From: Hirundichthys speculiger
Lineage: Eukaryota > Chordata > Actinopteri > Beloniformes > Exocoetidae
NCBI GenBank assembly: GCA_018398805.1
Contig: JAGFBZ010000854.1
Span: 744,001 to 808,000 of the forward strand
DNA: 64,000 bases
Direction of reading: 5' to 3'
A program made the position numbers and the translations under genes. The notes beneath the pieces are model-generated. The model searched no databases. It saw only the letters and a program-made list of their open reading frames with translations, and was not told where the DNA came from. This document shows, piece after piece, positions 4,923-62,702 of the stretch; position 1 is the first letter of the stretch; each line of letters begins with the position of its first letter.

Positions 4923-5158
4923 GTTGCAGACAAGCTTTTGCTTTTCTGTTCAAAGTTGCTTGATGTCAGTTTGTAAAGCACTGAAAAGAAAGAAAAAAAT
5001 AAAAACAATTAAAAATGTAATTTACCAATGTAAATGACTGTAAGGAAGATCAGTTTGATGCTTAGTCAAGAAAAAAAGGGGATCACAAATGTCAGGCCTT
5101 GTTGCAAAATATTCTTGGATTCTATGTAAAACCGTGTCATTTTTATTGTGTTTTTCAG

Positions 5159-14300: not shown

Positions 14301-17300
14301 GTTTTTTTTTTTTTTTTTTTTTTCATTTTTTCTCCGACCTCAGGTCTCCAAGGGAATATTTCAGAAATGGAGAACTTGCTGGTGCTGTGTTCTCGGCAGA
14401 AGTAGTGAGATTATTTAAGTCCTCTTTGACAGAATCAAGGTTTTAGGATTCAAAAATAACACTCCAAAACACACTTCAGGTCGCGGGCCGATTTTATTGA
14501 ACGCACTAAAACGAAATGTTTTTGGAACATAAATATGAATAAAAACAGACAGAAATATTATTCTGTAATAAACTTAAACCCTAAATAACTTATATTTAAT
14601 ATTTTGCTCTCCATAAAAATATCTTGTTAAATGATACAAGTTAGAAATATGAGCAACTTAACATTTAAATAACATTAAAAAACTGCTTTGCTCCTTATGC
14701 GAATGTATATAAAAAATAAACTTTAGAATATCCCAAAAGATTTTGCTCTCCTTAAAAATATCTCCTGTCAAAATTATACAAGTTAGAAATATGAACTTGC
14801 TAGAAAACCTGGAAGTATACATAAAATGTGTGCTTTTCAGCAATAACAATTCAAATCATTCAGGTTTTTTTTTTTTGACTACTTTTACATTCAGGTTAGT
14901 GCCATTGTCTATCAAAACCATCTACTATGTATATGCAATTTAATCTTATAGCAGACTTTTTACTGGGAAGTGCTGATGTTAAAAATGTTTGAACAACAAA
15001 TGTTATGGAACTTTAGTTCATATGGAGCAGAACATTTAAATTAAAGTGACCTTTACACTACTTTTGAATTCATTATTTGATTTTTCGCATACAATGCGAT
15101 TAATCGTGATTAATCAGGGAAATCATGCGATTAATCGCGAATAAAAATTTTAATCGTTGCCCAGCCCTAGTATATATATCCAGGTTTTGCCAGACTGTGG
15201 CACTAACCATCAATATATATGCAGACGGTTGTTGAAAAAAAAAAAAAAAAAAAATGGGGACATTTCACTAAAATCTTTCCAGATTATGTGAGAGACACAT
15301 CGTGTGTCCTTCAAACATTGAATTTATATACAAATATTTTTTCAAAGATTTTTTGCTGTTTCTACGGTCACATAACTATGGGGTTCATTGTATTGTCTAA
15401 AGACACTTGAGATGTAGTAGGACTGGGTATTAAATACCGACTTAAATTTTAGTCATAGCACCAAAACACATGTAATGCCAAACAAAAACAAGTTTTGACA
15501 ACATACTGATCCATTTTCTTCACCTTGTCTCGATCCTATGCAGAGATGCCATCTCCTCAGTTCTTTGACGGCCAGGCGTTGGTGTCCTGGAGTGAGCCAG
15601 ACATTACTGTCACTGTTCCCTGGTACATGGGTCTCATGTTCAGAACCAGGCAGCCTGCTGGGACCTTGATGCAGATCAATGCTGGACCTTCCTCCACTAT
15701 TAACCTCATGGTGAGATACAGCTTTCATCACTTTCAACAAGTTGTTTGGTTTGGTTATATGGTGTTAGAATAAAAATGAAAGAAGGACTTAGGGATTTAT
15801 GGGTTTGGGCTGAAGTCTGATTACTTTCTTTTCATTCTCTAGGTGAGTGAGCAACAGGTCCGTATGGAAGTGTTACTCAGGCAGCAGCTGATGGCATCCC
15901 TGAACTTTCTCCAAGTTCGTGTTAATGATGGGGAGTGGCACCACTTGTTGATAGAACTGAGAAGCATTAAAGATGGCAAAGACATTAAATACATGGCTGC
16001 TGTGTCACTGGACTATGGCATGTACCAGGTACAGAGCTTACTACAACACAGTTGGTGACTGTATAGAGAAATGTTCAGATTGGCATGTAAAAAAAATGTA
16101 TTTCTATGCAGAAGTCACTGGAGATTGGTAATGACCTGCCAGGTCTGAAGCTGCAGACACTTCATGTTGGAGGTTTGCCTGGAGAAGGAAACCGTGTCAA
16201 AAAAGGATTTGTTGGCTGCATACAGGTGGGTCTATGTTGAATATGTCTCATGCCTGCCAGAATATGCCTCTCCAGTTTTTGGACTTCCCTGAGTTTGCTC
16301 TTCATTATGCTCCCCATCAGGGTGTACGTATGGGTGAGACATCTACCAATGTTGTCAACGTGAACATGGCTCAGGGCTTGAAGATCCGCGTTGAAGATGG
16401 CTGTGACCTGGCAGACCCCTGTGACTCCAACATCTGCCCCGAGAACAGCCACTGCACTGATGACTGGAGTGCACACACTTGTCACTGTGACCCAGGTAAT
16501 ACACTCACACACACATATGTGTGTGTGTGTGTGTATCTGTATACAGTGGTGTTTGACTATGAAAAAAGTTAAGGCTCCGGATTTTTTTTTTTTAATTTAA
16601 GCCCTGAATATGGCATCAAAACATCTTTTTTAATTCACTTACTTGAAGGAAATAAGTATTTGACCCCCCGCTGATTTTGACAGTTGTCATACTAAGAAAT
16701 AAATGAACAGTCTCAGACTTCTATGGCAGCTTTATTTTAACAGTTATAGAAAGAATATTGAAAAAAAAATTGAGAAAATTACATGAAATGAAAAATAAAA
16801 ATTAATTTGAGTGCTGATGTTAAAAGTATTTGTACAACAAATGTTATGGCACCTTAGTTCATATGGTAGTAGAACATTTAAATAAAAGTGACCTTTACAC
16901 TACTTTTGAATTCATTATTTGATTTTTCGCATACAATGCGATTAATCGTGATTAATCAGGGAAATCATGCAAGTAATCACGGTTTCAGTACGGATTTGGT
17001 ACAGTTTCGATATGTGTTTTGTGCATATAGTGATAATTCATTTCTCTAAAATGATTTACAGTGGTACCTCTACTTACCAAAGTAATTGGTTCTGGAAGTA
17101 GTTTCGTGACCTGAAAATTTCGTAAGTAGAAATGTGTTTTCCATGTAAATGCCGTAATCCGTTCCAAGCCACCCAAAATTTGAACATCAATTTTTTATAA
17201 ATTATAAATAATACATGAAATGACATAAAAACCTGTAAGAAATAAAAAGAAATAAATGAATGTTAAAACTAGAAAAGCACCTCGACTAAGCGCAACAATT

Positions 17301-20300: not shown

Positions 20301-23300
20301 GGGCACAGGATTACGGGAAAAGGAGCCCAAGGGGACCAGTTAGTACTTGGGTGAGGGATCCCTCTGGTGGCGATTGGAGGAAGCCACAAAGGCCTGATTT
20401 GTGACACTTAAAGTAGACTTATTATGAAAAAAAAGGTTTCTGTACTTGAGAGCCTGTATTTAAAAGTGACTGAGGTGACTACCAAATCAAAAATTACATT
20501 TCAAAGTCTTGTCACAGCCTGAGTCTGAAATGTCAGTCAGTGATCTGTTGAATTTGTAGAGTTCTGTGACATCACAGACCAAGATAGACCCAGATTGAAG
20601 GAGGATGATTAATTTTCCATCCCTTTTCCTCCATCCAAAATCACATTATGCAACATTATCTGCCTTTCTCAAGTAAGTTATACAAAGCTGTTCACACTTT
20701 CAAAAGAAGTACATGTCAAGGAATAGGGGTGAAGTGGTGTCAAGTGGCTGATTCAACCCCCTGAAACTGGCTGCTACAAAGAGTGCCAGCAGACCATTTG
20801 ATGAGATCCAATTTAAAAAATATTGTTGAACCATCACTGTGATGGAAGAAGGGGCTGACTAAATGTACAACACTTATTTGTATTTGTATGGTAATTGCGG
20901 ATCCTTTACATCCCCTGACTATATGAATTCAGCATTTTTTTCACTTTACAATGACCTACTGAGCATAATGGGGACAATGTAGGGGCTCAGTGGTTTACCT
21001 GAGGACATTTTACTATTGCAAAGCAGGATGGCCATAACTGATTAAAGCATGCACATTTTTGGGTAATAGTTACAATGAGACAAGGCAAGAATGAAGAAAG
21101 AAAAACAAACTAGTTTCTCAGTTATTGAAATTTTCTCCAAGCTCATTTGTCATCATCATTTCCCTCATTCAGAACAACCACTATCGTCCAGAAGGTGAGG
21201 ATACCTGCTACCCCTGTGAGTGTTTCTCTGTGGGCTCTGAGTCTCGAAGCTGCAACCCCGTCACGGGTCAGTGCCCCTGCAAAGGAGGAGTCATTGGTCG
21301 TCAGTGTAATCAATGTGATAATCCCTTTGCTGAAGTCACACCCACTGGCTGTGAGGGTATGTAGATTGTAAATTGTTTTACATTTTGTCAAAATCTGTAA
21401 TATATACCAATATTGTTCATTAGTTAGCAGCAAGTGTCAAATTAAAGCATTGACTTGACCATTTTTAAGTAATTAATGCATAAAGGTGATCAATAAGTCA
21501 TATAAAGGTAAATTAATAAGAAGCTCTTAAATAAAAAAAAAACAACTGTCCAACGCATTATTAAAAGCTGGAAGGATAGTGGGAACCCATCGTCTTCGAG
21601 GAAGAAATGTGACCGGAAGAAAATCCTCAATGATCGTGATCGGCGATCACCTAAACGTTTAGTGAGAACTCAGGGCTGTTTAATAGTGAAAGTAAGAGCA
21701 TTTCCACACGCACAATGCTAAGGGAACTCCAGGGATTGGGACTGAACACCTATGTAGCCTTAAGAAAACCACTAATCAGTGAGGATAACTGGAAAAAAAG
21801 GCTTCAGTTTGCTAGAGAGCATAAAGATTGGACTCTGGAGCAATGGAAGAAGGTCATGTGGTCTGATGAGTCCAGATTGACCCTGTTCCCGAGTGATGGG
21901 AGCATCAGGATAAGAAGACAGGCAGATGAAGTGATGCTCCCATCATGCCTAGTACCTACTGTACCAGCCTGTGGGGGCAGTGTTCTGATCTGGGGTTGCT
22001 GCAGTTGGTCAGGTCCAGGTTCAGCAACAGTATGAGCTCAAAGAATGAGGTCAGCTGACTACCTGAATATACTGAACGACCAGGTTATTCCATAACTTAA
22101 GTTTCCCTTTCTCCTGTTCCCTTCAGGGGAACCTTGGAAATTTTAATATTTTTCAATATTGCTTGAAAAACGCAATATATTGCTATTGGTTTTAGATTAT
22201 TGTGATTTCATTTTTGATATCAATAGTGATAATGTTCACAAACCAACATTATCAGTGTTCATAATGTGTGCGTGCATTTTCTTCTTGCAGTGGTATACGA
22301 GGGCTGTCCCAAGGCATTTGATGCTGGTATTTGGTGGCCGAAGACCAAATTTGGTCGCCCTGCTGCCATGAACTGTCCCAAAGGATCCATCGGTGAGTTC
22401 CCTTTTATTCCAGCTGATAGATGTAATTTGTGGACTCCTTATTCAAAGGTGAATCTAATCAAAAGAGTCTGTGATACTCTTGAGATCAGTAGATACCAGG
22501 TTTTCATAAGTCTGGGAATTTTCAAAGTTGGAAAATTTCCATGGGAATTATTGGAAGTAAATGAGAATATATGGGGATCAAAGGGAAAAAACAAACAAAC
22601 AAACACAAAATTACATCATTTAATAAAAAACTTAAATGTAATTGATAAAACATCTTTTACCAAAATCTTTGTAATCATATTTGATGCAGATTCAGTTAGA
22701 TTTCTATCTTGTGCATTCTTCATCAAAAGCACAGATAATTTCTAGAATCCTGCACATGACACCAGGATTATTGAAGTCACATTATTTGAGCCCAAGGACA
22801 ACATTCAGTAAAGTAAATTTTGATCTTATTGCTAAGGTAAATACATTTGATCAGTGGTATTAAAGTTTACTGAAGTTTGTTGCAGTTGCTAGCTAGCCAG
22901 GTTATCAAGGATGCTAAAGTTAAAAGCTAGTGAACACCACTTCATTGACTGTTTAAGAGACTAGCATGGTGCTAAATAGCTCATTAATTCAATTTTATTT
23001 TATTTGTATAGAGTCTATTACAATGCAAGTTGTCTCTAGGTGCTTTACAGAGACCCAGAGCATGACCATTATTATTGTGGTGCTGTTTCTTTTGCCTTCT
23101 TCTTTTTTTCCTTTTAGCTATTCCCTGTAGGGGTCGCCCTACCAAACCATCTGCCTTCATCTAACCCTATCCTCTGCATCCTCTTCTCTCACACCAACTA
23201 ACTTCATGTCCTTGTTCACTGCATTCATAAATGTCCTATTTGGTCTTTCTCTAGACCTTCTGCCTCGCAGTTCCAACCTCATCATCCTTCTACCCATATA

Positions 23301-36400: not shown

Positions 36401-39400
36401 TTATTCCACCTGAAAGAGTCTTGAAATTACTCTCTGTGAAGGCTCAGCCTGTTGCAAAGCCTAGTACCACGCTAGCCAATCCAATGTGCAGGCTCTCAGC
36501 CAATGCTTGGTTAAAGGGGCCGCAGAATCGTTTCAGGACTGTCCAAGCAGATTTTCTGTTGGGATTTAGAGTCGATCATTATGACCTCCCCATCTATATG
36601 GAGCTCCACCATGGGGCCCTCTTGCTCCACAACTGGCCTCAGCCCCTATTGTCGCTTCTGCAGCAGCCACCTGCAAACATCTAAGAAATGACACTTGACC
36701 AGTCAAATGGTGTCTTTGGAATTAATTGTCATATATGATTGTACTATATGGGAAAATTGACAAGCCAGCAGCAGGAATTTTGTCATGTAATTTTATATGA
36801 AGATAAGAAAGTAATATAGTACATAAAGATATAAGTTTTTATACTCGCAAAATACGTTCAACAAATTCTCACCCCCACCCTTCTGTGGACAGCCTGTTAT
36901 AAATAAAGGTTTATTAATTTTTGCCGTCCAAATTCCCTCTTTGTCCCACTCAGATTCTGACTCAGACAGTGAGCTGTCGGTGGATGAACACAGCTCCTCC
37001 TATGCTTCGTCCCACTCTTCTGACAGCGAGGACAATGACATGGATGTTAAGCATAAATGGAACAATGAGAGGCCTCTTCACAGTACCCCAAAAGGTACAT
37101 ATTCTGACAGATTTTTTCCCCCATCCTAAAAGCTATACAATTATTATTTTTTTTTTATTTAACAATCCTGATTTCTCTTTGCTTTTTTTTTTCTAGGTGA
37201 CCCTAATCATTTGAATCCTTACTGGCCACCAGAGGCCACTACTGCCAGTGACAGCGAGGATCCAGGTGGGCCAGACAGGCTAAGGGTGGAGACCAAGGTG
37301 AATGTGGAACTGCACCCAGAAAATAAACTGGACCACATAAGTGAAAGAGGGAGGGAAGCTGTTCTGGAGAAAAACAAGCAGTCATCCACTAATGATAAAG
37401 ACATGGCACCTGTCATTCAACCCAACAGCAACTACCAACCAGAGCAGAGAAAAGGTGAAGAAAGAGAGTGTTTGTGAACTGAACAGAATGTTTGAATTAA
37501 TATTATCTGAAGTGGCCTAACACAAATCACTCTTCCTGCCAAGGTATCTTAAAGAATAAGATCAGCTATCCTCCTCCACTGACTGATAAGAACATGAAGA
37601 ACCGTCTGAGGGAGAAGCTGAGTGACTACAACTCCCCCGCCATCACTTCTCCACCCAACAACAATAACACTTCCCCTCCGTCTCTATCTTCTGTCAACAT
37701 CATGACCCCTTCTTCTCAGGCACCTTCACAGACCTCAAACGACGGCAACCGCGACAGCAGCACCCTCATTAAGCCGCCCATCACTCCAAGACCTCAGATC
37801 CCTCTTGGGCCACCACCAGCAGGCTTCTACCAGGAAGCCAACGGGGGAGTGGCCATGCACTTGAGGTCAGGGACCGTCAACGGTGGCAACGAGTCTGACT
37901 CAGAGTAAGTAATGTTGACATTAGAGCCATAAAAAAAAAAAAAAGAAAAAATCAATACCAAGTGTTAATTAAAATGATGTCAGATTAGAGGCTTATTTTT
38001 CATCAAATTCGACTGAAAGTCAACTTCACTCAGCAACGCTGCATTCTTTTATCATTCTTTGCACTAGTAAAAATTCAGCAGTAGTAATTGCTTAACATGT
38101 GTCTTCAGAATGCATTTATTCAGTATTATATTTATGTAATACAACAGATAAAATAGACTGAATTGGTTGTATTAAACAGTGGTTCATTCATTAAATGAAT
38201 GAATGATGATTCAACAGTGAGTACTTGCTATATCAGTCAATGCAAAAAGATAAACTTGAGATAGACTGCTGTAAATTCACAATCATCCAGGTCATGGTAA
38301 TTCTCAAAGGCTTGATTCAAGGCAACAGGACTTTCTTCTCTTGGCTCCTGAAGACGTTTCACCTCCTATCCAGAAGGCTTTGTCAATTCAAGCCACTTAA
38401 CAAAGCTTTTCAGATGGAAGGTGAAATGTCTTCAAGAGCAAAGAAGAGAAACCTTTTTCCTTTGACTAAAGCCTGAAAAAAATCATTGGACTTCAAAAAA
38501 TGTCCAATTTTTTTCACTTCAGGAGTGTTCTCGCAACAACTGAATCATAGGCAACCTGGACTTAGATTTGTCTAGAAGACGTTTCGCCTCTTATCCAAGC
38601 AGCTTCATCAGTTCTCAGCGCATCAGTCTGACTAGTCCGCACTAGTCCGACAAACAGTGGAGTATGACTCTGGTTTTTAACCTCTGTGGAGGTGTACCCC
38701 CCACCACTTTCCAAAGACAATACTTCGTTAGTGGAGTTTCGCTGGACCCTTTGTTTGGGTCAGGAGAGCCACACCAGTGAAAGGACAGTCGTTAGGAGTG
38801 ACTCTAGGTGTGGCTCTAAACTGTAGTGGCTCAGAGCAAAGACAAAAACATCACAATCCTTCCAGCTGATAAAGGATGATTCACAGTTACCCTAAATACA
38901 ACTGACTACAATGCTAAAGTCTCCACACTACTCAATGATGCTAACACCTAGGAAATCCTGAAGCGAGACCCATCCAGCGGGTACAAAAAGAAGGTGATAC
39001 AATGCCTAGAGCCGTTACAAAAAGATGGAGCGGTTGACTGCCCTCAGTACCTCAAACTCTACCCACAAGACACCATTCCATGTCTATATGGACTCCCCAA
39101 GATCCATAAAGAAGGGGTCCCACTCAGACTCATCGTCAGTAGCATAAACTCAGTGACATACAATATTGCAAAGCAGGTAGCTAACATTTTAGCTCCTCTG
39201 GTGGGTAACACACCACACCACATACAAAACTCGCATGAATTTGCAAACAAAATCCGGGGTTTAAGGCTGGAACTGGATGAAAGCATGGTATCATATGATG
39301 TAACATCCCTATTCACTTGCATCCCAATCAGGGAAGCAGTGGAAACGGTGAGGCCTCATCTTACACAGGACAGTACATTACCGGACAGAACTAATCTCAA

Positions 39401-40833
39401 TACAGAATAAATTTGCCAGTTACTGGAGTTGTGCCTTAACACCACATACTTCCAGTTAAACGGCAGTTTTTACAGACAAAAACATGGCTGTGCTATGGGG
39501 TCACCAGTATCCCCCATTGTGGCAAACCTATATATGGAAAGACTAGAACAAAAGGCACTGAGCTCGTACAAGGGTACATCGCCAAGCCACTGGTTCAGAT
39601 ATGTGGATGACACGTGGGTGAAAATCAAATCCCAGGAACTAGAGGCTTTTACTGAACACAAGTTACTCATGTTCACTAGAGAAGATGTTAATGACAACCA
39701 CCTTCCTTTCTTAGACTGTGATGAACACAAACATGTGAGGAGGGCGTTGGAAACTTGCGGCTATCCTAGCTGGACATTCAACAGAACAAAACAATCCAAC
39801 AAGAACAATAACTCAGAGAGGGCTGAGGAAGGTAACAAGTGCAGGAACATTGTCAAACCTTACGTGTTTGGGGTGTCGGAAAACTCAGGAGAATTTTCAG
39901 TCAACACCAAATTCCTGTGTGTTTCAAACCAGGTAACACACTCAGGCAAAAACTAGTACACCCCAAAGACAGGGTACCCCACATGCAAAAAAACAATTTG
40001 GTATATGCTGTCCAATGCAGTGAGGAATGCAAAGACTCATACATTGAGGAAACCAAACAACCACTAAACAAACGCATGGCTCAACACAGAAGGGCGAACT
40101 CCTCAGGTCCAGTTTCTGCTGTTTATGTTCATTTAAAGTAAAAGAATCCATCTACGTTAAAATAGAGAAGCCGTCTCTAGACAGGGGAGGTGGCTTAAGA
40201 TTCCATCTATGTCCCATTTACAACGCAGCCCTCGCTACTGTTCCTAAGAGACTGAACAACAAGGACTGCCCAAAACTAAACTCAAGTTGCTCAAAGAAAC
40301 ATAACGACAGTCGTTCACTGGTAACCACACCTCATGCCTAAAGACTGTTGTCCACCAGTGGCCCCACTCACTCCTAACGACTGTCCTTTCACTGGTGTGG
40401 CTCTCTGGACCCAAACAAAGGGTCCAGCGAAACTCCACTAACGAAGTATTGTCTTTGGAAAGTGGTGGGGGTACACCTCCACAGAGGTTAAAAACCTGAG
40501 TCATACTCCACTGTTTGTTGGACTAGTGCGGATTAGAAGCTGCTTGGATAAGAGGCGAAACGTCTTCTAGACAAATCTAAGTCCAGTTGCCTATGATTCA
40601 ATTGTTGCGAGAATGGAACTTACCTGGATAAATGAGAATATCCACAGACTTCAGGAGTGAAATAATTTACCCAACCTACTTAAATTCTGCATGAAGACTC
40701 CCTGTATTCTTTTTCACCTTGCATGTTTTTGTTTTCCCTTCTCCGTCCCTGCTCACATCTTCCCTGCATCCCCTCGTCTCATACTACCACCCTTTCCTCC
40801 TTTAACAGTGGTAGTAATGAGACTTCCATCTAA
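5159..40833 (+). CDS. celsr1: celsr1-type adhesion GPCR, 3' half of gene (30 exons, introns included)
   Basis: Seven-pass cadherin (Flamingo/CELSR family), a plasma-membrane receptor that mediates homophilic contact and planar cell polarity. Seen here in order: end of laminin-G 1, EGF, laminin-G 2, two EGF repeats, laminin-type EGF, hormone-receptor motif, GAIN domain with GPS, seven helices, and a Ser/Asp-rich tail. The cadherin repeats and start codon are upstream of the window. The tail (DSDSDSELS and YPPPL-type segments) resembles CELSR1 more than CELSR2 or CELSR3, and tbc1d22a follows, as on human 22q13, so I call it celsr1; the a or b fish copy cannot be decided. Intron phases agree at all joints except where three exons carry frame-breaking indels (near 18017, 28011-28014 and 33497-33508). 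With so many intact exons and splice sites I favour a functional gene with assembly errors, or a very recent lesion, over an old pseudogene. Confidence 0.93.
5612..5740. repeat. dispersed repeat family B, end with TIR-like terminus
   Basis: Second copy of the family at 2228-2330, ending GGCCAGACAGTGTAG after a T run. Located in the celsr1 intron directly after the first visible exon. Confidence 0.6.
6205..6368 (+). CDS. celsr1: celsr1 exon: end of laminin-G domain 1
   Basis: Completes the split Lys, then reads [20 protein letters not shown] and a conserved [18 protein letters not shown], the C-terminal strands of laminin-G 1. The acceptor is TTTCTGCAG and the donor is GGTAAAAC; the exon ends in phase 1. 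The following intron holds a complete hAT-type MITE. Confidence 0.94.
6526..7199. mobile_element. hAT-type MITE with perfect 8-bp target duplication
   Basis: Starts CAGGGGTGTCAGAC and ends TTTGACACATGTG. Flanked by GTGTAAAG at 6518-6525 and 7200-7207. The 674-bp body has no intact transposase. Confidence 0.83.
7445..7570 (+). CDS. celsr1: celsr1 exon: EGF-like repeat between the laminin-G domains
   Basis: Encodes one EGF-like module with cysteine pattern [15 protein letters not shown] followed by [14 protein letters not shown]. The six cysteines and the terminal Gly-Gly-x-x-Cys are in place. Starts and ends in phase 1; donor GTAAGA. An intron of about 8 kb, full of repeats, follows. Confidence 0.94.
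8070..10066 (-). mobile_element. possible decayed LTR retroelement
   Basis: Weak call. On the minus strand a 20-base segment (9541-9560) reads TGGTGACCCTGACGTGATTC, a primer-binding-site-like sequence just after a TTTCAA end. Beyond it lies a possible LTR with a TATAAAAAAACC box (about 9743-9757). Downstream on the same strand are ORFs at 8362-8559 and 8070-8447 that overlap in different frames and look like one broken reading frame. No motif identifies the family, and no second LTR was found. Confidence 0.3.
11767..12038. mobile_element. hAT-type MITE with perfect 8-bp target duplication
   Basis: Starts CAGGGCTTGACGCTAAC and ends CAGTGTCAAACCCTG. Flanked by CTCACACT at 11759-11766 and 12039-12046. 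Confidence 0.85.
13145..13659. mobile_element. hAT-type MITE, left flank interrupted
   Basis: Ends are CAGTGGTCCCCTAACC and (inverted) CAGTGGCCCCCAACATT. CTCTAAAG lies directly right of it (13660-13667) and again at 13102-13109, 35 bp left of the element; see findings. Confidence 0.75.
14880..15169. repeat. dispersed repeat family A, longer copy
   Basis: Starts TTTTACATTCAGGTTAGTG and ends GCCCAGCCCTAG. The first 80 bases recur at 29205-29282, the rest at 1624-1811 and 16811-16985. Confidence 0.75.
15544..15710 (+). CDS. celsr1: celsr1 exon: laminin-G domain 2, first part
   Basis: Phase-1 start completes Glu, then [15 protein letters not shown] and [12 protein letters not shown], matching the start of CELSR laminin-G 2. 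It ends after TINLM in phase 0 at a GTGAGA donor. Confidence 0.94.
15843..16028 (+). CDS. celsr1: celsr1 exon: laminin-G domain 2, central part
   Basis: A 62-codon phase 0-0 exon. It contains [14 protein letters not shown] and [15 protein letters not shown], the strongly conserved core of laminin-G 2. The acceptor is CTCTAG and the donor is GTACAG. Confidence 0.95.
16112..16225 (+). CDS. celsr1: celsr1 exon: laminin-G domain 2, third part
   Basis: A 38-codon phase 0-0 exon reading [17 protein letters not shown] and then GFVGCIQ, the C-terminal part of laminin-G 2. Donor GTGGGT. Only 83 bases separate it from the exon before. Confidence 0.95.
16321..16495 (+). CDS. celsr1: celsr1 exon: end of laminin-G 2 and start of next EGF
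   Basis: Reads [10 protein letters not shown] and [17 protein letters not shown], then the first half of an EGF repeat. It ends in phase 1 at CCA-G with donor GTAATA. A CA/TG dinucleotide run starts immediately after the donor. Confidence 0.94.
16549..16810. mobile_element. Tc1 terminal fragment with shared flank
   Basis: From about 16637 it matches the left terminal repeat of the Tc1 element at 55298 (GGAAATAAGTATTTGA, then about 150 bases). The 90 bases before also match the DNA just outside that element (55206-55297). The transposase and right end are missing. Confidence 0.8.
16811..16985. repeat. dispersed repeat family A, truncated copy
   Basis: Matches 14970-15140, then diverges at AAATCATGCAAGTAATCACGG. 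It directly abuts the Tc1 fragment on its left. Confidence 0.75.
17059..17370. mobile_element. mariner-type MITE half plus inserted repeat family C
   Basis: Starts at a TA with CAGTGGTACCTCTACTTAC. At about 17271 it switches to ACTAGAAAAGCAC, the start of repeat family C (copies at 47791-47980 and 63109-63342). The same junction exists inverted at 63342. Confidence 0.75.
17390..17931. repeat. T-rich TTTAGTTTT repeats and GC-rich segment
   Basis: About 17395-17550 is a degenerate TTTAGTTTT tandem array. From 17560 to 17880 the DNA is GC-rich with many CpGs. It ends GTTAACTTGCCCAGCCCTA, a relative of the family A end, so it is probably one non-autonomous element lying just before the acceptor of the EGF exon. 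Confidence 0.5.
17994..18136 (+). CDS. celsr1: celsr1 exon: EGF repeats, with a +1 frame break
   Basis: Enters in phase 1 as GYFGKDCV, the end of one EGF repeat, then should continue [10 protein letters not shown] through GQYCENK, the next EGF. The two stretches lie in different frames. The break falls at GTTGGAC (18014-18020), where one G too many sits at 18017/18018. As written the frame runs into TGA at 18041. Exon length (143) is one more than the entry and exit phases of the neighbouring exons allow. Acceptor CTCGCAG and donor GTAAGG are normal. Confidence 0.88.
19212..19332 (+). CDS. celsr1: celsr1 exon: laminin-type EGF, first part
   Basis: Reads [20 protein letters not shown] and [11 protein letters not shown]. 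The GWWG and CGPCNC pattern is the family-specific entry to the laminin-type EGF module. Phase 2 in, phase 0 out; donor GTGATT. Confidence 0.94.
19790..19960 (-). repeat. dispersed repeat family D, hAT-like end
   Basis: On the minus strand it reads GGTGAGATGAAGCCTCATGA and CAAAGCTTCATGTGCGCATG, matching the start of the element at 23703. The surrounding intron (19333-21172) shows no gene. Confidence 0.6.
19990..20410. repeat. probable dispersed repeat, unclassified
   Basis: A purine-rich stretch with AACAGTCCAGGTAGGCAACA and related phrases, similar in style to 54192-54530. Seen in many fish genomes as a non-coding repeat; I cannot name the family. The ORF at 20011-20280 (-) has no recognisable motif. 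Confidence 0.35.
21173..21356 (+). CDS. celsr1: celsr1 exon: laminin-type EGF, second part
   Basis: Continues with [37 protein letters not shown] and [11 protein letters not shown], the rest of the laminin EGF-like module. Phase 0 in, phase 1 out; donor GTATGT. Confidence 0.95.
21541..22098 (+). pseudogene. Tc1-like transposase fragment
   Basis: Broken frames read the HTH part ([20 protein letters not shown]) and the catalytic part ([41 protein letters not shown]). The first catalytic Asp (WSDES) is present. Ends of the element were not found; frameshifts and truncation make it dead. It lies in a celsr1 intron. Confidence 0.85.
22291..22392 (+). CDS. celsr1: celsr1 exon: hormone-receptor motif, first part
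   Basis: Reads [20 protein letters not shown] and then CPKGSI, the WWP-containing first half of the hormone-receptor domain preceding GAIN in adhesion GPCRs. Phase 1 in and out; donor GTGAGT. Confidence 0.94.
22984..23075 (-). mobile_element. L2-type LINE 3' end
   Basis: On the minus strand it reads CTCTGTAAAGCACCTAGAGA and ends in an AATAAAATAAAATTGAATT tail, the usual L2 3' terminus. Same family as 48300-48560. Confidence 0.75.
23090..23290 (-). mobile_element. RTE/Rex3-type LINE fragment
   Basis: On the minus strand it encodes the Arg/Lys-rich end of an RTE-type ORF ([24 protein letters not shown], with AEDRVR nearby). The plus strand shows the widely repeated CATCCTCTTCTCTCACACCA. 5'-truncated. 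Confidence 0.65.
23301..23702 (+). mobile_element. Tc1-like element, left end only
   Basis: Starts after TA with CAGAGCCTTGCGAAAGTATT, a Tc1 terminal repeat. It runs to ATGAAGACCAAGGAACACAC, the first codons of a transposase (MKTKEHTRQ), where it stops abruptly at the next element. Confidence 0.8.
23703..24690. mobile_element. hAT-like element (family D)
   Basis: Starts TAGTGATGAGATGAAGCCTC. The far end, read inverted, begins GATGACGTCCGAAGCCTTGC and includes a CACGTGACTGCTTCGGGAAG stretch resembling the start imperfectly. It interrupts the Tc1 end at 23702. No transposase seen. Confidence 0.5.
25210..25304 (+). CDS. celsr1: celsr1 exon: hormone-receptor motif, second part
   Basis: Reads [20 protein letters not shown] and continues into the linker to GAIN. 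The paired cysteines and GW match the family. Phase 1 in, phase 0 out; donor GTGACT. Confidence 0.93.
25541..25750 (+). CDS. celsr1: celsr1 exon: GAIN subdomain A, first part
   Basis: A 70-codon phase 0-0 exon reading [18 protein letters not shown] and ESRQTGFDL, the helical GAIN subdomain A. The acceptor is CAACCAG and the donor is GTAGAA. Confidence 0.94.
25995..26178 (+). CDS. celsr1: celsr1 exon: GAIN subdomain A, second part
   Basis: Reads [27 protein letters not shown] and [14 protein letters not shown]. Phase 0 in, phase 1 out (ATG-A), donor GTGAGT. The following intron has a short (TA)n run. Confidence 0.95.
26313..26456 (+). CDS. celsr1: celsr1 exon: GAIN subdomain B, first part
   Basis: Completes Ile and reads [29 protein letters not shown] and HFPQFN, the beta-sandwich entry of GAIN. 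Phase 1 in and out. Confidence 0.92.
26541..26724 (+). CDS. celsr1: celsr1 exon: GAIN, tandem acceptor
   Basis: The acceptor is TAGCAG (26538-26543), so splicing after either AG keeps the frame and adds or drops one Ala. The body reads a Thr/Pro-rich linker, a basic DRKRRHLE patch, then [20 protein letters not shown]. Ends in phase 2 with donor GTACAG. Confidence 0.92.
26930..27180 (+). pseudogene. pogo/psq-type DNA-binding domain remnant
   Basis: An ORF contains [20 protein letters not shown] and [16 protein letters not shown], a helix-turn-helix of the type at the N-terminus of pogo/Tigger-derived transposases. The rest of the transposase is absent. Confidence 0.7.
27703..27870 (+). CDS. 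celsr1: celsr1 exon: GAIN subdomain B before the GPS
   Basis: Reads [17 protein letters not shown], then [23 protein letters not shown] sequence (here EERTK is EERTK with Arg-Thr-Lys: codons CGC ACG AAA). The donor at 27871 is a perfect GTGAGT; an alternative GT lies two bases upstream. Choice of donor matters for the frame of the next exon, see findings. Confidence 0.9.
28007..28132 (+). CDS. celsr1: celsr1 exon: GPS autoproteolysis site, with a -1 frame break
   Basis: Encodes [19 protein letters not shown] and [16 protein letters not shown], the GPS motif with its Cys pair and His-Met-Thr cleavage tripeptide. With the consensus donor of the exon before, the frame fits only if one G is added to the GGGG run at 28011-28014; as written the consensus splice reads to a TGA at about 28094. 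Using the weaker donor at 27869 instead restores the frame at the cost of one residue. Donor GTACTC. Confidence 0.88.
28210..28410 (+). CDS. celsr1: celsr1 exon: transmembrane helices 1-2
   Basis: A 67-codon phase 0-0 exon. It reads [20 protein letters not shown], a leucine-rich helix 1, [19 protein letters not shown], then [13 protein letters not shown], matching the start of the CELSR seven-helix domain. Donor GTCAGT. A repeat-rich intron of 2.8 kb follows. Confidence 0.95.
28700..29110 (-). other. unrecognised 123-codon ORF in celsr1 intron
   Basis: ORF at 28727-29098 on the minus strand, moderately GC-rich compared with its surroundings. No domain recognised. It may be a retroelement gag-type fragment or chance. 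A repeat fragment follows at 29205. Confidence 0.25.
29205..29282. repeat. dispersed repeat family A, 5' fragment
   Basis: Matches 14882-14960 (CATTCAGGTTAGTGCCATTG and TATATGCAATTTAATCTTAT) and then runs into a T tract. Confidence 0.7.
29860..30140. repeat. C-rich low-complexity repeat
   Basis: Very C-rich on the plus strand, with GGGCCAGACTGGCCCAAGAG and many CCCC runs; a phrase seen in fish repeats. It adjoins a LINE fragment. No coding function proposed. Confidence 0.5.
30138..30607 (-). mobile_element. non-LTR retrotransposon reverse-transcriptase fragment
   Basis: On the minus strand reads MLLVDFSSA (motif A region), then [13 protein letters not shown] and [11 protein letters not shown]. 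The catalytic Asp pair of the FADD box is altered to Ile-Asp-Asn. Frameshifted and truncated. Confidence 0.75.
30655..31015 (+). pseudogene. Tc1-like transposase fragment and 3' end
   Basis: Reads [20 protein letters not shown] and then frameshifted pieces of the following segment. The end (about 30925-31010) shares GTCTAATATTTAAG and AACATTTAA-GTGACAA phrases with 60945-61015, a Tc1 right end. Located just upstream of the helix 3-4 exon. Confidence 0.75.
31192..31366 (+). CDS. celsr1: celsr1 exon: transmembrane helices 3-4
   Basis: Reads [37 protein letters not shown] and [10 protein letters not shown]. It holds the conserved helix-3 Cys for the extracellular disulphide. Phase 0 in, phase 1 out; donor GTGAGA. 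Confidence 0.96.
32131..32243 (+). CDS. celsr1: celsr1 exon: second extracellular loop and helix 5
   Basis: Reads [19 protein letters not shown] followed by [12 protein letters not shown]. The [11 protein letters not shown] loop with its disulphide Cys is nearly invariant in CELSR proteins. Phase 1 in, phase 0 out; donor GTATGT. Confidence 0.96.
33025..33110. repeat. short dispersed repeat
   Basis: TTGGACCCAAATGCAGGAGA followed by a TTTATTTAAACTC stretch, resembling the start of the repeat at 54192. Family not known to me. The rest of the intron 32244-33292 is AT-rich with no gene. Confidence 0.4.
33293..33372 (+). CDS. celsr1: celsr1 exon: end of helix 5 and third intracellular loop
   Basis: Reads [20 protein letters not shown] and VEKSGA, ending with AT of a split codon at donor GTAAGC (phase 2). 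The basic loop and position match the family. Confidence 0.9.
33489..33619 (+). CDS. celsr1: celsr1 exon: helices 6-7, frame break near 33500
   Basis: In the entry phase it reads IPALRT, but the conserved helix 6 ([17 protein letters not shown]) and [12 protein letters not shown] lie in another frame. The switch falls within TACG-TACG-TATG (33497-33508); removing one four-base unit gives a smooth PALRMAF join. Exon length 131 is four more than a frame-preserving 127. The acceptor follows a (TA)n-(T)n tract, itself slippage-prone. Donor GTAAAA. Confidence 0.86.
33727..33852 (+). CDS. celsr1: celsr1 exon: end of helix 7 and start of cytoplasmic tail
   Basis: A 42-codon phase 0-0 exon reading [19 protein letters not shown] and a Ser/Thr-rich stretch up to SLLT. 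It covers the end of helix 7 and the amphipathic segment after it. Donor GTATGT. Confidence 0.94.
33977..34113 (+). CDS. celsr1: celsr1 exon: cytoplasmic tail, RSLNCNN segment
   Basis: Reads [17 protein letters not shown] and [20 protein letters not shown], matching the conserved proximal tail. Phase 0 in, phase 2 out; donor GTAACA. Confidence 0.94.
34993..35093 (+). CDS. celsr1: celsr1 exon: cytoplasmic tail
   Basis: Reads [20 protein letters not shown] and NSTKGD, a poorly conserved tail linker. Phase 2 in, phase 1 out; donor GTGAGT. Confidence 0.9.
35094..36953. other. celsr1 tail intron without recognised features
   Basis: No exon, transposon or RNA gene recognised. The ORF at 36364-36684 (+) has no family resemblance and is probably chance. 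Confidence 0.4.
36954..37094 (+). CDS. celsr1: celsr1 exon: acidic serine cluster of the tail
   Basis: Reads [20 protein letters not shown] and SDSEDND, the hallmark Ser/Asp cluster of CELSR tails (casein-kinase-2-like sites), then HSTPKG across the joint. Phase 1 in and out. Confidence 0.95.
37197..37454 (+). CDS. celsr1: celsr1 exon: cytoplasmic tail
   Basis: Reads [33 protein letters not shown] and EQRKG across the joint. VETKVxVELH is a CELSR1 tail signature. Phase 1 in and out; acceptor after a long T tract ending TTCTAG. Confidence 0.93.
37544..37904 (+). CDS. celsr1: celsr1 exon: distal cytoplasmic tail
   Basis: Reads [32 protein letters not shown], a Ser/Pro/Asn-rich linker, then [15 protein letters not shown] and ESDS. 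The donor GTAAGT at 37905 splits the final codon (GA); without splicing the frame reads Glu then TAA at once, giving a shorter natural end. Confidence 0.93.
38335..38450. repeat. inverted repeat with degenerate hammerhead-like arms
   Basis: Left arm contains CCTGAAGACGTTTCACCTCC, right arm GGAAGGTGAAATGTCTTCAA, in opposite orientation about 60 bases apart. Both resemble the GAAACGTC region of the ribozyme in the Penelope element next door, but the CTGATGA box is not intact. Confidence 0.55.
38574..38618 (-). ncRNA. hammerhead ribozyme core in left terminal repeat
   Basis: Read on the minus strand: AGAA, CTGATGA (38605-38611), a stem II with a GGAT loop and one mismatch, GAAAC (38581-38585) and GTC (38578-38580) followed by TTCT. 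Stem I pairs AGAA with TTCT. Stem III is only A-U and C-G with no loop, the minimal form known from Penelope elements that is thought to need pairing of two copies. All core bases are present. Activity is untested. Confidence 0.75.
38830..40140 (+). pseudogene. Penelope-like reverse transcriptase and GIY-YIG nuclease, broken
   Basis: Reads [59 protein letters not shown] and RYVDDTW; the catalytic Asp pair in YVDD is kept. After PFLDCD the frame jumps to [17 protein letters not shown], so the thumb region is deleted. The nuclease part reads [20 protein letters not shown]; the Gly of the YIG box is replaced by Glu, and the C-terminal half is missing. Interrupted by several stops. Confidence 0.87.
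40809..40833 (+). CDS. celsr1: celsr1 terminal coding micro-exon with PDZ-ligand-like end
   Basis: After a strong polypyrimidine tract and TTTAACAG, joining GA of the exon before gives Asp, then Gly-Ser-Asn-Glu-Thr-Ser-Ile and TAA. The end fits a class I PDZ ligand (Thr at -2, Ile at 0). The frame, acceptor and short clean reading support it, but there is no transcript evidence. Confidence 0.75.
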
Positions 40834-43062: not shown

Positions 43063-43170
43063 GTAGTTGCCAAAAAGCATGAGATATATAAGTGTAACAA
43101 AAACGGCGGTGAGACAGAATAAAGACACAGTGAGCACACAGTCGTTGTTGGTGAATTATTGGATATAACA
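43063..43170 (+). repeat. left LTR of small Ty3/Gypsy element
   Basis: 108 bp, starting GTAGTTGCCAAAAAGCATG and ending TGGATATAACA. The right copy at 45444-45550 has few differences. It contains a TATATAAG box and AATAAA, as promoter and poly-A signal of an LTR. Confidence 0.85.
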
Positions 43171-43244
43171 TTGGCAACGAAGATGGAGAATCTTTTCTCT
43201 CCCCTACCTCCATTCCTTCCTCTTTCCAGCGAACTGTCGATCCC

Positions 43245-43610
43245 ATGGCCCCGCTGGTACGACTCACGCTGATAGCCTCAACAAACGTTGAGGCTATCAG
43301 GCTTGCCGGGGCTAGCGACGCACGTCGAAAGGCAATGCTGATCCACTGCCTGGGCAGCGAAGGTCAACGCATCTTCAGGACACTTGGACCCACCGACAAA
43401 TACGATGACTGTGTCGCCCTACTGACCGGACATTTCGTTGCTCCGCAGAGCATTATGGTACGGCGGATTGATTTCCAACAGCGGCCCGGTGAGTTGGTCC
43501 ACCATTACGTTGCCGACCTCCGGGGTTTAGCCAGCCTCTGCAAGTTCTGTGTTTTGGAGCAGGAGATGATTCGGGACCAGTTGGCGGCACACAAACCGAC
43601 CCCAAGCTAG
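43245..43610 (+). pseudogene. gag-like fragment of the Ty3/Gypsy element
   Basis: A 121-codon ORF with ARRKAMLIHCLGSEGQRIF and a PGELVHHYVADLRGLA stretch, the capsid-like region of Gypsy gag. No zinc knuckle is seen before the stop at 43608-43610. Confidence 0.7.
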
Positions 43611-43689
43611 CTGCTAGCTCTGCTGCGGTCCGCCAGTTGAAAACGCAGCTCACCTCCCCTCCTGTGCTCCCCCCCACTTTGACCTGCTG

Positions 43690-45463
43690 AGCCCCACATT
43701 TTTGACCTGCGACGCGCTTCCAACTCAGCCATTGGCGCTGTCCTGTCACAGCTCCAGGGAGGGACTGAACGCCCCGTGGCGTTTGCTTCAAGGTCGCTCT
43801 CCCCGACCGAGCAGAAGTACTCTGTAGGTGAGAGGGAAGCCCTGGCCTGCGTCTGGGTGTGTGAGCGGTGGCACATGTAACTATACGGGCTGCACTTCAC
43901 ACTCCGGACCGACCACCAGGTGCTTACAGCCCTGCTGGCTACGACCGGGTCAGGACACAAGCCACTGTGCCTATACCGGTGGTCAGAGAGGTTGCAGGCA
44001 TATAATTTAACCCCCAGGTTTACACCTGGCAAAGACAATGTTGTGGCTGACCTGCTCTCTAGAGCCACTCCCACCCCTGTGCCGCATACCACCCAAGACT
44101 GCTCAGCACCAGAGCTGGTTCTCATGTTACACGGACCCCTCTGAGCTGCCGTGTCCCTACAGGAGCTCCAGGCAGCCTCAGCGCAGGACCCTGTGTTCGC
44201 TCAGCTCCGCTCCTTCATCCAGGGGGGTTGGCCTGCCAAAGTACCGGAGGAGCTAGCACCATTCCACCGTGTCAAGGATGACCTCTCCTGCTGGAATGAG
44301 GACTGTGTGGCGAGGGGGCTGTGCGCAGTGATCCCCGGCGCCTTGAGAGCCAGTATCCTGGCCATGGTCCATGAAGGTCACATAGGCATCGTGAGGGTGA
44401 AGCAGCGCTGCAGGGGCCTGGTTTGGTGGCCAGGCATGGACAGGGACATTGAGACAATGGTGAAGGACTGTGCAGCCTGCCTCACCAGCGGAAAGATGGG
44501 CCTGCCCTCAACCCCCCCTTGCAACCCCTACCTTGGCCAAGAGCACCGTGGGGCCACATCCAGCTGGATATCTGTGGGGAACTCTACGGCATTCCTCACC
44601 ACCAGCGCTTCCTTCTGGTGGTCTATGACCTCCACTCCAAGTGGCCTGAGGTCCTCCCTGTTGGATCTGTCACCACCAACATGGTCACTGACTTCCTCTG
44701 CTCCCTGTTTGCCCGCTGGGGCGTGCCTGATACTATCACCACAGATAACAGCCCCCAGTTTGTTGCTGCTGACTTTGCTTCCTTCACGGGGGAGAGGGGA
44801 ATAAAACATATTTGAACTGCCCTGTACCACCCACAAGCTAACGGCAGTGTGGAGAGGTTTGATCAGATACTCAAAAATGGACTGAGAGCACATTTGGCAG
44901 ATGGTTTCCCATTTGCGTCAGCGCTGCAGAACACCTTGCTGCATTACAGGGCAACACCACACGCCGCAACAGGCTGCTCCCCACCCCTCCTGATGTTGGG
45001 ACGTGAACTCCAGCTTCCCTTAGATCGTCTACGGCCTCTTCAAAAAGACGTTCCGACAGCGGAGCCTTCTATCGGCAACAGGGTAGCTGGGCAGCAACGC
45101 CGCAGGAAGCAGCAGTTTGACAGAGCGCGTCGGGTGAGACGTCCCACACTCGCAGCGTTTGACTGGGTCCGTGTGCGCCGGCCCAATCGGTCTCACAAGC
45201 TGCTCTCTTTCTGGTCTGCCCCACAACAAATAACAGCACAATTAGGACCAGCTACCTTTCTCCTTGCCGATGGCTCACGTTGGCATGCCAGCCGCCTCAG
45301 ACGGGTCACTCCACCACCTGCCTCTGACCAGGCGATGACCACTAAGGATCTACGTCACACAGACGGGAACTGGGACATTCCCCTGGCACAATCAGGAGCC
45401 CCGGTGGCACATCGATCAGAGCCTGAGGCACCAGCCGGGGGGGGTAGTTGCCGAAAAGCATGA
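43690..45463 (+). pseudogene. RNase H and integrase of the Ty3/Gypsy element, broken
   Basis: Reads AIGAVLSQLQGGTERPVAFA and GEREALACVW (RNase H), TDHQVLTALL and GKDNVVADLLSRA, then the integrase zinc region (VHEGHIGIVRVKQRCRGLVW and a CAAC pair), LDICGELYG, TTDNSPQF and YHPQANGSVERFDQ. Integrase Asp, Asp and Glu are in place. Stops near 43878, 44144 and 44815 and a shift near 43712 break the frame. Confidence 0.85.
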
Positions 45464-47988: not shown

Positions 47989-48060
47989 GCGTTGGTGGTA
48001 TAGTGGTTAGCATAGCTGCCTTCCAAGCAGTTGACCCGGGTTCAATTCCCGGCCAACGCA
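47989..48060 (+). tRNA. tRNA-Gly (anticodon TCC)
   Basis: A complete 72-nt cloverleaf. The acceptor stem GCGTTGG pairs with CCAACGC at 48053-48059 with a discriminator A. The anticodon TCC is at 48022-48024 in loop CTTCCAA; the B box GGTTCAATTCC is at 48039-48049. It closely matches vertebrate tRNA-Gly-TCC. No intron. No TTTT terminator follows within about 100 bases, and L2 3' sequence lies downstream, so it may be a retro-copied or chimeric tRNA rather than an active gene. Confidence 0.93.
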
Positions 48061-48560: not shown

Positions 48561-49424
48561 ATAAGTTCATAAAAAGTTGGCCTTCAATACCTCTTCAGCT
48601 GTTTTAATTTGACACCATTGTTGGGTTAATTGTTTTCCGGAAGGGAAAGATGAAAATATGAAGAGAAAAGGCACTTCTAAAAACTTGATTTGCATCATTT
48701 CAGGAAGAGGCACTTTTGATTTTATTATGAAGAAATGTTTTTTATTAGTTGTAATGCAGGCCTCAAGTTCACTGTTAGCTGCACGTGTCTCAATGTGAAC
48801 ACAAAAAATAAATGTTGAAATGATATGGAAATATAGGATGTGCTTTTGATTAACATGGACACCCTATATATGCCATGGTATGTGATGCAAGAGATGTGTG
48901 GTCTGGACCGTGTGACAGAAGAAATTTTAGTGACTGGACCCATTAGAATTTTAATTGATTAACCCTGCTCTAAAACATCCATCTTTGGCACCAATGAACC
49001 AGGTGAGGAAAGCAATACTCCTACCCACAAACACAGAGGTCGGTGCCACAGGAACCGTCTGGACCCAGGCTGACAAGAACGCACACTGCAAACATCAGCC
49101 ACAGTGTAGGGCCCCGCCCACCCAGAACACAGACAATCCCCATGGCAACGACCCCAGAAACCAAGCAGATGTGGAGGACCCCCATGAGGAGAACACTGGA
49201 GTTAAAGAAGATAAAATTTCAAACAGACTTAAAATCAATAAAAACAGCTAAGAAATACTAAGAAGCTAAGAAATACATAAATGAATGACTATACAATTAA
49301 ATGAACATTGAATAGACATTTATGCTTTACATCCCTCCCCCAACAACCCCCCCCTTCTATCAACACAATCAATCTCTCTTGGAACAGGTGCCTTTTTACA
49401 AAAAAAAAAAAAAAAAAGAAATGC
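48561..49424. other. intergenic DNA, partly LINE-related
   Basis: No gene recognised. From about 48955 the C/A-rich text and a C-rich run at 49335-49355 probably belong to the LINE that follows; a similar C/T-rich phrase occurs inverted near 29640-29690. Confidence 0.4.
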
Positions 49425-50150
49425 TGCAGGAATGCTGCAGGTCCTGACAACATACCTGGGGGTGTGCTCAGAGACTGTGCTAACTTGCTTACAGATGATC
49501 TCACAGATATCTTCAATACTCGTCTGAGCCACGCCATCATACCAGTATGCTATAAAGCCACCACCATCATCCCGCTACCGAAGAAATCCCCAGCCACAAC
49601 AATGAACAGCTACAGGCTCATAGCACTCACTCCCATCAGGATTAGGTGCGTTGAATGGTTGGTCAAGGCCCATATAACATCCAGTCCCCCCGATCCACTT
49701 GACTCATTCCAGTTTACATACTGTCCGAAGTGCTCCACTGATGATGCCATGGCAACAGCACTTCACCTATGCCTGGCTCATCTGGAAAACAAAAACAGTC
49801 ACGCACGGATGCTGTTCATCGAGTTAAGCTGCTTCAACACAGCAATCAGCAACGATAGCAACTCAGCTTCAGGAGGTACATCAACTCATCAACTGCTGTG
49901 CAACATTAATAACCTACAGCTCAATGTTAACAAAACGAAAGAAATAACTGTAGACTTCAGGAAGAAGCACATGTCACACACCCCACTCATCATCAACGGC
50001 ATCAATGTGAAGTCTGTGAAAAGCATCAAGTTCCTGGGGCTGTAGATTACAGATAACCTGACATGGACAACCAACGCCACCTCCCTAGACAAGAAGGTAC
50101 AGCGACGCCTCCACATCCTCTGCAGGATGAGGAGAGCTGACACACCACAG
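49425..50150 (+). pseudogene. non-LTR retrotransposon reverse transcriptase, internally deleted
   Basis: Reads AAGPDNIPGGVLRDCANLL, PLPKKSPATTMNSYRLIALT, CSTDDAMATALHLCLAHL and MLFIELSCFNTAIS, then jumps to LQLNVNKTKEITVDFRKKH and IKFLGL. The segment with the catalytic FADD box is missing. Jockey/CR1/Rex1-like by style. The first in-frame ATG lies in repeat DNA and is not meaningful. Confidence 0.8.

Positions 50151-51625: not shown

Positions 51626-62702
<11,077 letters not shown>

What the first reader, a model, noticed from the sequence alone, without database searches (positions are those of the whole stretch)
38527..40612. Penelope-like element with inverted arms and an intact antisense hammerhead core
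The left arm, read on the minus strand, has the CTGATGA and GAAAC-GTC boxes, a stem I of AGAA/TTCT and a seven-pair stem II with one mismatch. Stem III is loop-less, the minimal type that is expected to act as a dimer. The right arm keeps GAAACGTC (40557-40564) but has lost CTGATGA, reading GGATTAGAAG. So the ribozyme lies on opposite strands in the two arms and only one is potentially active.
Basis: partly seen in the sequence, partly recalled or inferred. Interest (0 to 1): 0.75.

Follow-up and report, generated by a model that had tools for sequence, protein, structure and literature searches.

The report
Dead Penelope element with minimal hammerheads
This is a broken copy of a common Penelope-like jumping gene, probably in a fish genome, whose two inverted ends each carried a tiny self-cutting RNA motif; the motif is real but ordinary for this element class, and its presence on both strands probably reflects how the element inserts.

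Summary
The strict descriptor fits once in the window and never in 300 shuffles. Rfam does not recognise it. The element runs 38528-40647 inside a 12-bp flanking repeat, with a Penelope 'tail' at the right end only, and is dead.

The genome holds 398 exact core matches (reversed-pattern control 0). A second copy of this insertion (L009) keeps both ribozymes, so the right-arm loss is a private 26-nt deletion. Of the 100 core matches listed, 11 of 11 close pairs are head-to-head; one fetched locus (L017) has direct pLTRs, so tandem copies exist but are not the rule. In 11 of 11 classifiable TSD-bounded inverted insertions, one end has the tail and the other lacks it. The likeliest reading: each cut target strand primes one cDNA at one of two adjacent start sites, making the antisense ribozyme a by-product. 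New member of a known kind. Cleavage is untested.

The parts
38516..38527 (.). Left target-site duplication ACTTCAGGAGTG
   Evidence: identical 12-mer on both flanks; the first ACTT may be shared with the tail
38528..38801 (-). Left arm: inverted pseudo-LTR (pLTR) without tail
   Evidence: inverted repeat of the right arm; outer end matches the no-tail end class of the genome family
38574..38615 (-). Minimal type I hammerhead motif: boxes intact, extra A at 38604, loop-less stem III; predicted cleavage between 38578 and 38577
38802..40367 (+). Degenerate RT / GIY-YIG gene remnant with in-frame stops, frameshifts and two internal deletions (about 168 and 65 bp relative to other copies); the first part of the gene is also missing relative to L012 and L017
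   Evidence: ORFs, RVT_1 above cut-off at 39411-39956, breaks against relatives, GIY-YIG weakly in relative L014
40368..40613 (+). Right arm: pLTR in sense orientation
40536..40568 (+). Broken hammerhead: stem II, GAAACGTC (40557-40564) and stem I 3' strand kept; 26-nt deletion ending at 40535/40536 removed the 5' stem I strand and most of CTGATGA
   Evidence: alignment with the other family arms (40 rows)
40614..40647 (+). 34-nt tail; with the last A of the pLTR it opens ATG (40613-40615) MELTWINENIHR
   Evidence: 3' ends of family copies cluster here; frame read by eye; in L012 and L017 the same sequence runs on into the gene; tail at the start of the ORF agrees with PMC11167929
40648..40659 (.). 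Right target-site duplication ACTTCAGGAGTG
38264..38480 (.). Older, decayed Penelope-type fragment just upstream, itself head-to-head (boundaries approximate, by eye)
   Evidence: minus-strand part aligns to pLTR+tail with score 75 against a shuffled maximum of 32; plus-strand part aligns to it only at the shuffle level (33 against 33) but matches the minus-strand part with score 84

Best explanation
A dead, internally deleted Penelope-like retrotransposon of a large family in its host genome. Shown: each arm is the 3' end of the element facing outward, and each 3' end carries a minimal type I hammerhead (the right one here destroyed by a private deletion). Shown: the classifiable inverted insertions with target-site duplications combine one tail end with one no-tail end. 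Inferred: the element's endonuclease cut both target strands; each 3'-OH primed a cDNA on element RNA, one at the tail site and one about 34 nt upstream; the two cDNAs met head to head. The hammerhead is thereby copied in both orientations. The sense copy would belong to the RNA of the element; the antisense copy in the left arm is a by-product. The template RNA of these copies was not cleaved at the ribozyme, since their cDNAs run across the cut site.
For: Architecture: TSD, inverted pLTRs, tail; RT domain and weak GIY-YIG in a relative. Family: 165 matches in the genome, a lower bound with 40 of 910 candidates scored; 398 exact core matches against 0 for the reversed pattern. Ends: of 44 rows, two (L012 at 2269, L017 at 4819) are pLTR-gene junctions inside an element; the other 42 fall in two tight classes, 23 at the tail (22 at q308, one at q303) and 19 at q274-278. 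TSD-anchored insertions with two 3' ends: W/L009, L011, L012, L016, L019, L022, L027, L040, L048, L049, L050, that is 11 independent insertions, 11 of 11 with one tail and one no-tail end (the script flagged nine, L019 and L040 were called by eye from diverged ends); P = 0.003 under random pairing. Close core pairs: 11 of 11 head-to-head. Published: a purified Penelope protein cuts and extends both strands, starts RT at two adjacent sites that bound the tail, and mainly uses uncleaved RNA (PMC11167929); inverted pLTR with a tail on one of them and TSD is described for rotifer elements and called typical (PMC3846280).
Against: Within-element arms are not always the closest pair: closer than every other element for W (0 of 79 comparisons as close), L011 (0 of 84) and L048 (0 of 84); L027 1 of 83; but L049 13 of 87, L050 25 of 84, L009 25 of 80, L019 42 of 84. 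So one shared template RNA is not established. The anole protein showed no difference in start site between the two strands (PMC11167929), which does not predict strict one-of-each. The GIY-YIG match is below Pfam's cut-off. L048-L050 were picked because they were inverted core pairs, though not for their tails. Two inverted loci could not be classified: L028 (left arm stops at q180) and L017 (cut by the edge of the fetch). At least four one-sided insertions with TSD-like matches of 11-14 nt (L035, L037, L043, L044) lack a second 3' end. L017 has a direct pLTR pair.
Confidence: 0.72

Rival explanations
1. The inverted arm arises by self-priming or template switching on a single antisense or sense template (fold-back cDNA), not by priming from both target strands.
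For: Proposed for rotifer Penelope elements, which show palindromes at the inverted junction and mostly head-to-head order (PMC3846280, passages). In W, L011 and L048 the two arms of one element are closer to each other than to any other element compared.
Against: Does not by itself predict one tail and one no-tail end with a TSD in 11 of 11, nor an inverted piece as short as 38 nt that is little more than the tail (L022).
Confidence: 0.22
2. The left-arm motif is a functional antisense ribozyme that cleaves minus-strand transcripts, possibly as a trans-dimer with other copies (the palindromic ACGU of stem III allows a 4-bp intermolecular stem).
For: All core boxes intact; dimer-type activity of Penelope hammerheads is reported (cited in PMC7761336; the original papers were not held). 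An extra A at the same core position occurs in the active plus hammerhead of a viroid (PMC3705267, passage). Bidirectional promoter motifs are proposed for rotifer pLTRs (PMC3846280).
Against: The minimum-energy fold of the isolated left-arm motif is not the hammerhead (-10.2 against -5.5 kcal/mol, without tertiary or stem III terms). The motif is antisense to the RT gene and to the probable host gene. No transcript data were available here. The anole Penelope ribozyme did not cleave without protein (PMC11167929).
Confidence: 0.15
3. The boxes are a chance match with no ribozyme history.
For: No Rfam match; no compensatory pair changes among 30 copies.
Against: Full descriptor in 0 of 300 shuffles; the motif recurs in 19 of 40 loci examined (22 full matches) and 398 times as an exact core in the genome; reviews place Penelope hammerheads in the pLTRs too.
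Confidence: 0.03

Closest known systems
Penelope/Poseidon elements such as PAc of Anolis carolinensis (PMC11167929)
   Same: RT + GIY-YIG gene, pLTR, hammerhead upstream of the RT start sites, tail inside the start of the ORF, two end positions. The cut-to-start distance there (cut 26 nt, main start 111-118 nt into the ORF, so about 85-92 nt) is close to the 83 nt from cut to tail end here.
   Different: PAc is described as tandem or partial tandem; here the arms are head-to-head and the copy is dead. The apparent ORF start here lies downstream of the hammerhead, not at stem II.
Rotifer Penelope elements Pen2a_Av and a Pen2 derivative (PMC3846280)
   Same: Inverted pLTRs, 31-bp tail on one of them, 9-10 bp TSD, internal deletion and stop in a derivative.
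   Different: Pen2a has two direct pLTRs plus an inverted one (as locus L017 seems to have here); the window copy has one sense and one inverted arm. That paper holds the words hammerhead and ribozyme 0 times.
Minimal type I hammerheads of Penelope-like elements (Cervera and De la Pena 2014; Lunse et al. 2017; neither held, known here only as cited in PMC6155905, PMC7229834, PMC7761336)
   Same: Type I core without a real helix III, in pLTRs, proposed to act as dimers.
   Different: Extra A after the core in this family; close pairs among the listed places are head-to-head, not tandem. Whether those papers already show the extra A could not be checked.
Plus-strand hammerhead of chrysanthemum chlorotic mottle viroid (PMC3705267)
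   Same: An additional A between A9 and G10.1, which moderately lowers the trans-cleaving rate.
   Different: Viroid ribozyme; no relation by descent is claimed.

Membership tests
Penelope-like element (endonuclease-bearing) | Reverse transcriptase domain | tested here: met
   RVT_1 31.4 bits, cut-off 29.6, window 39411-39956; relatives 42.5 and 37.1 bits. Placement in the Penelope clade itself was not tested by a tree.
Penelope-like element (endonuclease-bearing) | GIY-YIG endonuclease domain | tested here: inconclusive
   Not found in the window ORFs given; in relatives L014 E 0.0015, 19.2 bits and L013 E 0.095, 13.5 bits, both below the cut-off of 22.6
Penelope-like element (endonuclease-bearing) | pLTRs, with an optional 30-40 nt tail on one | tested here: met
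   definition from PMC3846280 and PMC11167929
Penelope-like element (endonuclease-bearing) | Target-site duplication | tested here: met
   12-bp direct repeat, 38516-38527 and 40648-40659, of which 8-12 bp are duplication
Hammerhead ribozyme, type I (minimal Penelope form) | CUGANGA ... GAAA ... UH core with stems I and II (recalled definition) | tested here: met
   Left arm, minus strand; one extra A, one G.A mismatch in stem II
Hammerhead ribozyme, type I (minimal Penelope form) | Recognised by the Rfam covariance model | tested here: not met
   the model was not shown to be sensitive to forms without stem III (no control rang)
Hammerhead ribozyme, type I (minimal Penelope form) | Covariation supporting stems I and II | tested here: inconclusive
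   30 copies, 23 distinct: 97.7% of cells paired, 0 pairs with changes on both sides; copies too alike
Hammerhead ribozyme, type I (minimal Penelope form) | Self-cleavage at GUC | not testable with these tools
   needs an in vitro assay

The most novel reading that the evidence does not exclude
Inverted pLTRs of Penelope elements, and with them the ribozyme on both strands, are the direct product of a two-site, two-strand primed reverse transcription: one target strand primes at the tail site and the other at the site about 34 nt upstream, so every two-ended insertion has exactly one tail. This turns the old 'optional tail' into a strand-specific signature of the mechanism.
Probability: 0.4. 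Interest if true: 0.6.

Novelty: new member of a known kind. Interest (0 to 1): 0.35.

Why it matters
The ribozyme itself adds one more Penelope family with a minimal hammerhead. The useful part is the census: hundreds of cores in one genome, close pairs head-to-head in all 11 listed cases, and one tail per classifiable two-ended insertion. It argues that the templates were uncleaved RNA, that in those close pairs a tandem dimer is not on offer, and that inverted arms report on how Penelope elements insert, which is still poorly known.

Tried and rejected
Rfam on the whole window and on the element: one tRNA elsewhere at the gathering score; weak microRNA-precursor matches at 38326-38455 come from the palindromic older Penelope fragment and lie far below their cut-offs. 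Whole-genome search with RF00163: nothing, but no control rang either. Relatives in viral contigs by DNA pattern and by RT protein: none. Protein search: 610 matches of 637 candidates, the best 120 listed, mostly unnamed; the few named come from fish, echinoderms and an acorn worm; used only as a sign that the RT is widespread in animals. Search for solved structures with a relative's RT piece: none. L009 was first taken for an independent insertion; rejected because both flanks and the TSD match. Whether it is an allele or a segmental duplicate stayed open because the flank search did not complete. Covariation: uninformative. Ribozyme cut site as a cDNA end: in the loci fetched, arm alignments begin inside the arm at q23, 50, 67, 69, 109, 167, 183, 191, 237, 255 and 271 (some may be deletions, not cDNA ends), none at q225 where a cleaved template would end; too few to exclude rare use. 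I first counted all 44 end rows as 3' ends; two proved to be internal junctions and were dropped. I first wrote that no tandem copies exist; L017 contradicts that. Papers: section 3 (Main text) of PMC11167929 read; PMC3846280, PMC7229834, PMC6155905, PMC7761336, PMC12531169, PMC3705267 and PMC7599744 passages only; others search listings only. Searches bearing on two-strand priming, inverted pLTRs and teleost hammerheads in Penelope (one search listed 15 of 26 papers) showed no title or abstract start that states the one-tail rule; most subscription papers are not held, so this does not show that it is unpublished.

Full report
What is there. The stretch 38528-40647 is a single retrotransposon insertion. 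It is bounded by a 12-bp direct repeat ACTTCAGGAGTG (38516-38527 and 40648-40659); the first ACTT may belong to the element, so the duplication is 8-12 bp. Its left arm (38528-38801) and right arm (40368-40613) are inverted repeats of high identity. Between them lies a decayed gene on the plus strand with an RVT_1 match above the Pfam cut-off (39411-39956), interrupted by stops and frameshifts. Against other copies it has two internal deletions of about 168 and 65 bp and lacks the first part of the gene. After the right arm come 34 nt, 40614-40647, that the left arm lacks; read from ATG at 40613 they give MELTWINENIHR, and in L012 and L017 the same sequence runs on into the gene. In the anole Penelope element the tail likewise lies in the start of the ORF, between two reverse-transcription start sites (PMC11167929, Main text section).

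The ribozyme. On the minus strand of the left arm the type I hammerhead boxes are complete: AGAA / CTGATGA / stem II / GAAAC-GTC / TTCT, 38574-38615. Stem II has six pairs of seven, one of them G-U, with a G.A mismatch. Stem III is two pairs without a loop. An extra A stands between the core and stem II; the plus hammerhead of a chrysanthemum viroid has an A at the same place, which lowers trans-cleavage moderately (PMC3705267, passage). The strict descriptor occurs once in the window and in none of 300 shuffles. Rfam finds no hammerhead, and the whole-genome test with RF00163 is uninformative because no control genome rang. Reviews say that Penelope hammerheads usually lack helix III (PMC6155905; PMC7761336; passages), so failing that model is weak evidence against.

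The right arm lacks CTGATGA through a 26-nt deletion. The second copy of the same insertion, L009 on a 32-kb contig, shares both flanks and the TSD but has the motif in both arms. The loss is therefore private to the window copy. Divergence between the two copies is 1.7-1.9% in the flanks, 2.9-3.7% in the arms and the middle, and 4 of 34 in the tail.

The family. In the host genome (about 1.04 Gb, unnamed; fish is an inference, not shown) a search with the element counted 165 matches, a lower bound (40 of 910 candidates scored). I fetched 39 loci and later three more. In 40 loci (39 plus the window) the strict ribozyme descriptor is met 22 times in 19 loci; 21 loci have none, through mutation, truncation, deletion or lack of the arm. 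The core pattern occurs 398 times exactly, and 0 times as the reversed control. Thirty copies aligned over the motif pair at 97.7% of cells with no compensatory change; they are too alike to test the stems. The majority sequence and the L009 right arm have stems I and II in their minimum-energy fold, but with part of the core paired (GAUG with CGUC); the window's left arm folds otherwise.

Orientation. Of the 100 places listed (of 398), the pairs closer than 10 kb number 11, and all 11 are minus then plus, that is head-to-head; none are tandem or tail-to-tail (one plus/plus pair lies 43 kb apart). Elements with one damaged motif, like the window's, are missed by this count. Tandem copies do exist: in L017 a pLTR at 4819-5124 and one at 2012-2305 lie in direct order with the gene between, and an inverted piece follows, as in the rotifer element Pen2a (PMC3846280); both of these direct motifs are damaged. 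So a cis-dimer is not available in the window copy or in the listed close pairs, but cannot be excluded for full-length relatives.

The ends. One search lists 44 rows that reach the 3' end of the pLTR. Two of them (L012 at 2269, L017 at 4819) are pLTR-gene junctions inside an element. The other 42 fall in two tight classes, 23 with the tail and 19 without; W and L009 are one insertion counted twice. With L048-L050 there are 48 ends, 26 tail and 22 no-tail. Anchoring by target-site duplications gave 11 independent insertions with two 3' ends, all 11 with one tail and one no-tail end (L019 and L040 by eye; L012 holds further arm pieces inside). Two more inverted loci could not be classified: L028, whose left arm stops at q180, and L017, cut by the fetch. 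Under random pairing of 11 and 11 ends the chance is 0.003. At least four one-sided insertions with TSD-like matches of 11-14 nt (L035, L037, L043, L044) also exist. The two arms of one element are closer to each other than to every other element for W, L011 and L048 and nearly so for L027, but not for L009, L019, L049 and L050; L012, L022 and L040 were too short to compare and L016 was not compared.

How it most likely works. The purified anole protein cuts and extends both target strands, starts inside the RNA at two adjacent sites, and mainly uses uncleaved RNA; it showed no difference in start site between the strands (PMC11167929). Put together with the ends found here, the simplest account is that each strand of the cut target primes one cDNA, one at the tail site and one about 34 nt upstream, and that the two cDNAs join head to head. 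Both arms are then 3' ends facing outward, each with a hammerhead cut site 50 nt (no-tail) or 83 nt (tail) from its end. The steps shown are the architecture, the TSDs, the end classes and the one-tail rule in 11 insertions; two-strand priming in this family, and which strand uses which site, are inferred. The antisense motif of the left arm is most likely a by-product. Inverted pLTRs with a tail on one of them are already described (PMC3846280, passages), where self-priming was preferred as the cause.

Setting. Plus-strand open frames at 16.1 and 22.3 kb match cadherin EGF LAG seven-pass receptor 1 and the second also the hormone receptor domain, so the element probably sits in an intron of, or just beyond, that gene, in the same orientation as its RT gene (placement inferred). 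The intact motif is antisense to both.

Verdict. It is an ordinary dead copy of a Penelope-like family with a minimal hammerhead. The end census is the part worth following.

Noticed in passing
window 38264-38480: An older Penelope-type fragment, apparently also head-to-head with a tail-like left end, lies directly upstream of the insertion; it also causes sub-threshold microRNA matches in Rfam.
   Followed up: partly
window 16135-16572, 22233-22745: Open frames of a CELSR-type adhesion receptor on the plus strand; a long open frame at 37501-37908 might be a late exon but matched no Pfam family.
   Followed up: partly
L019 2189-2575 and 4542-5017: One divergent copy carries an array of 36-bp-spaced repeats at the junction of gene and pLTR in both inverted halves.
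   Followed up: no
L017 2012-6001: Direct pLTR - gene - pLTR with an inverted piece next to it, like rotifer Pen2a.
   Followed up: partly
window 47989-48060: tRNA gene, plus strand, 63.5 bits.
   Followed up: no
window 55509-56545 (minus), 43155-45463 (plus), 49305-50045 (plus): Open frames that look like Tc1/mariner transposase, a Gypsy-type polyprotein and a LINE reverse transcriptase (by eye and from recall, not tested).
   Followed up: no
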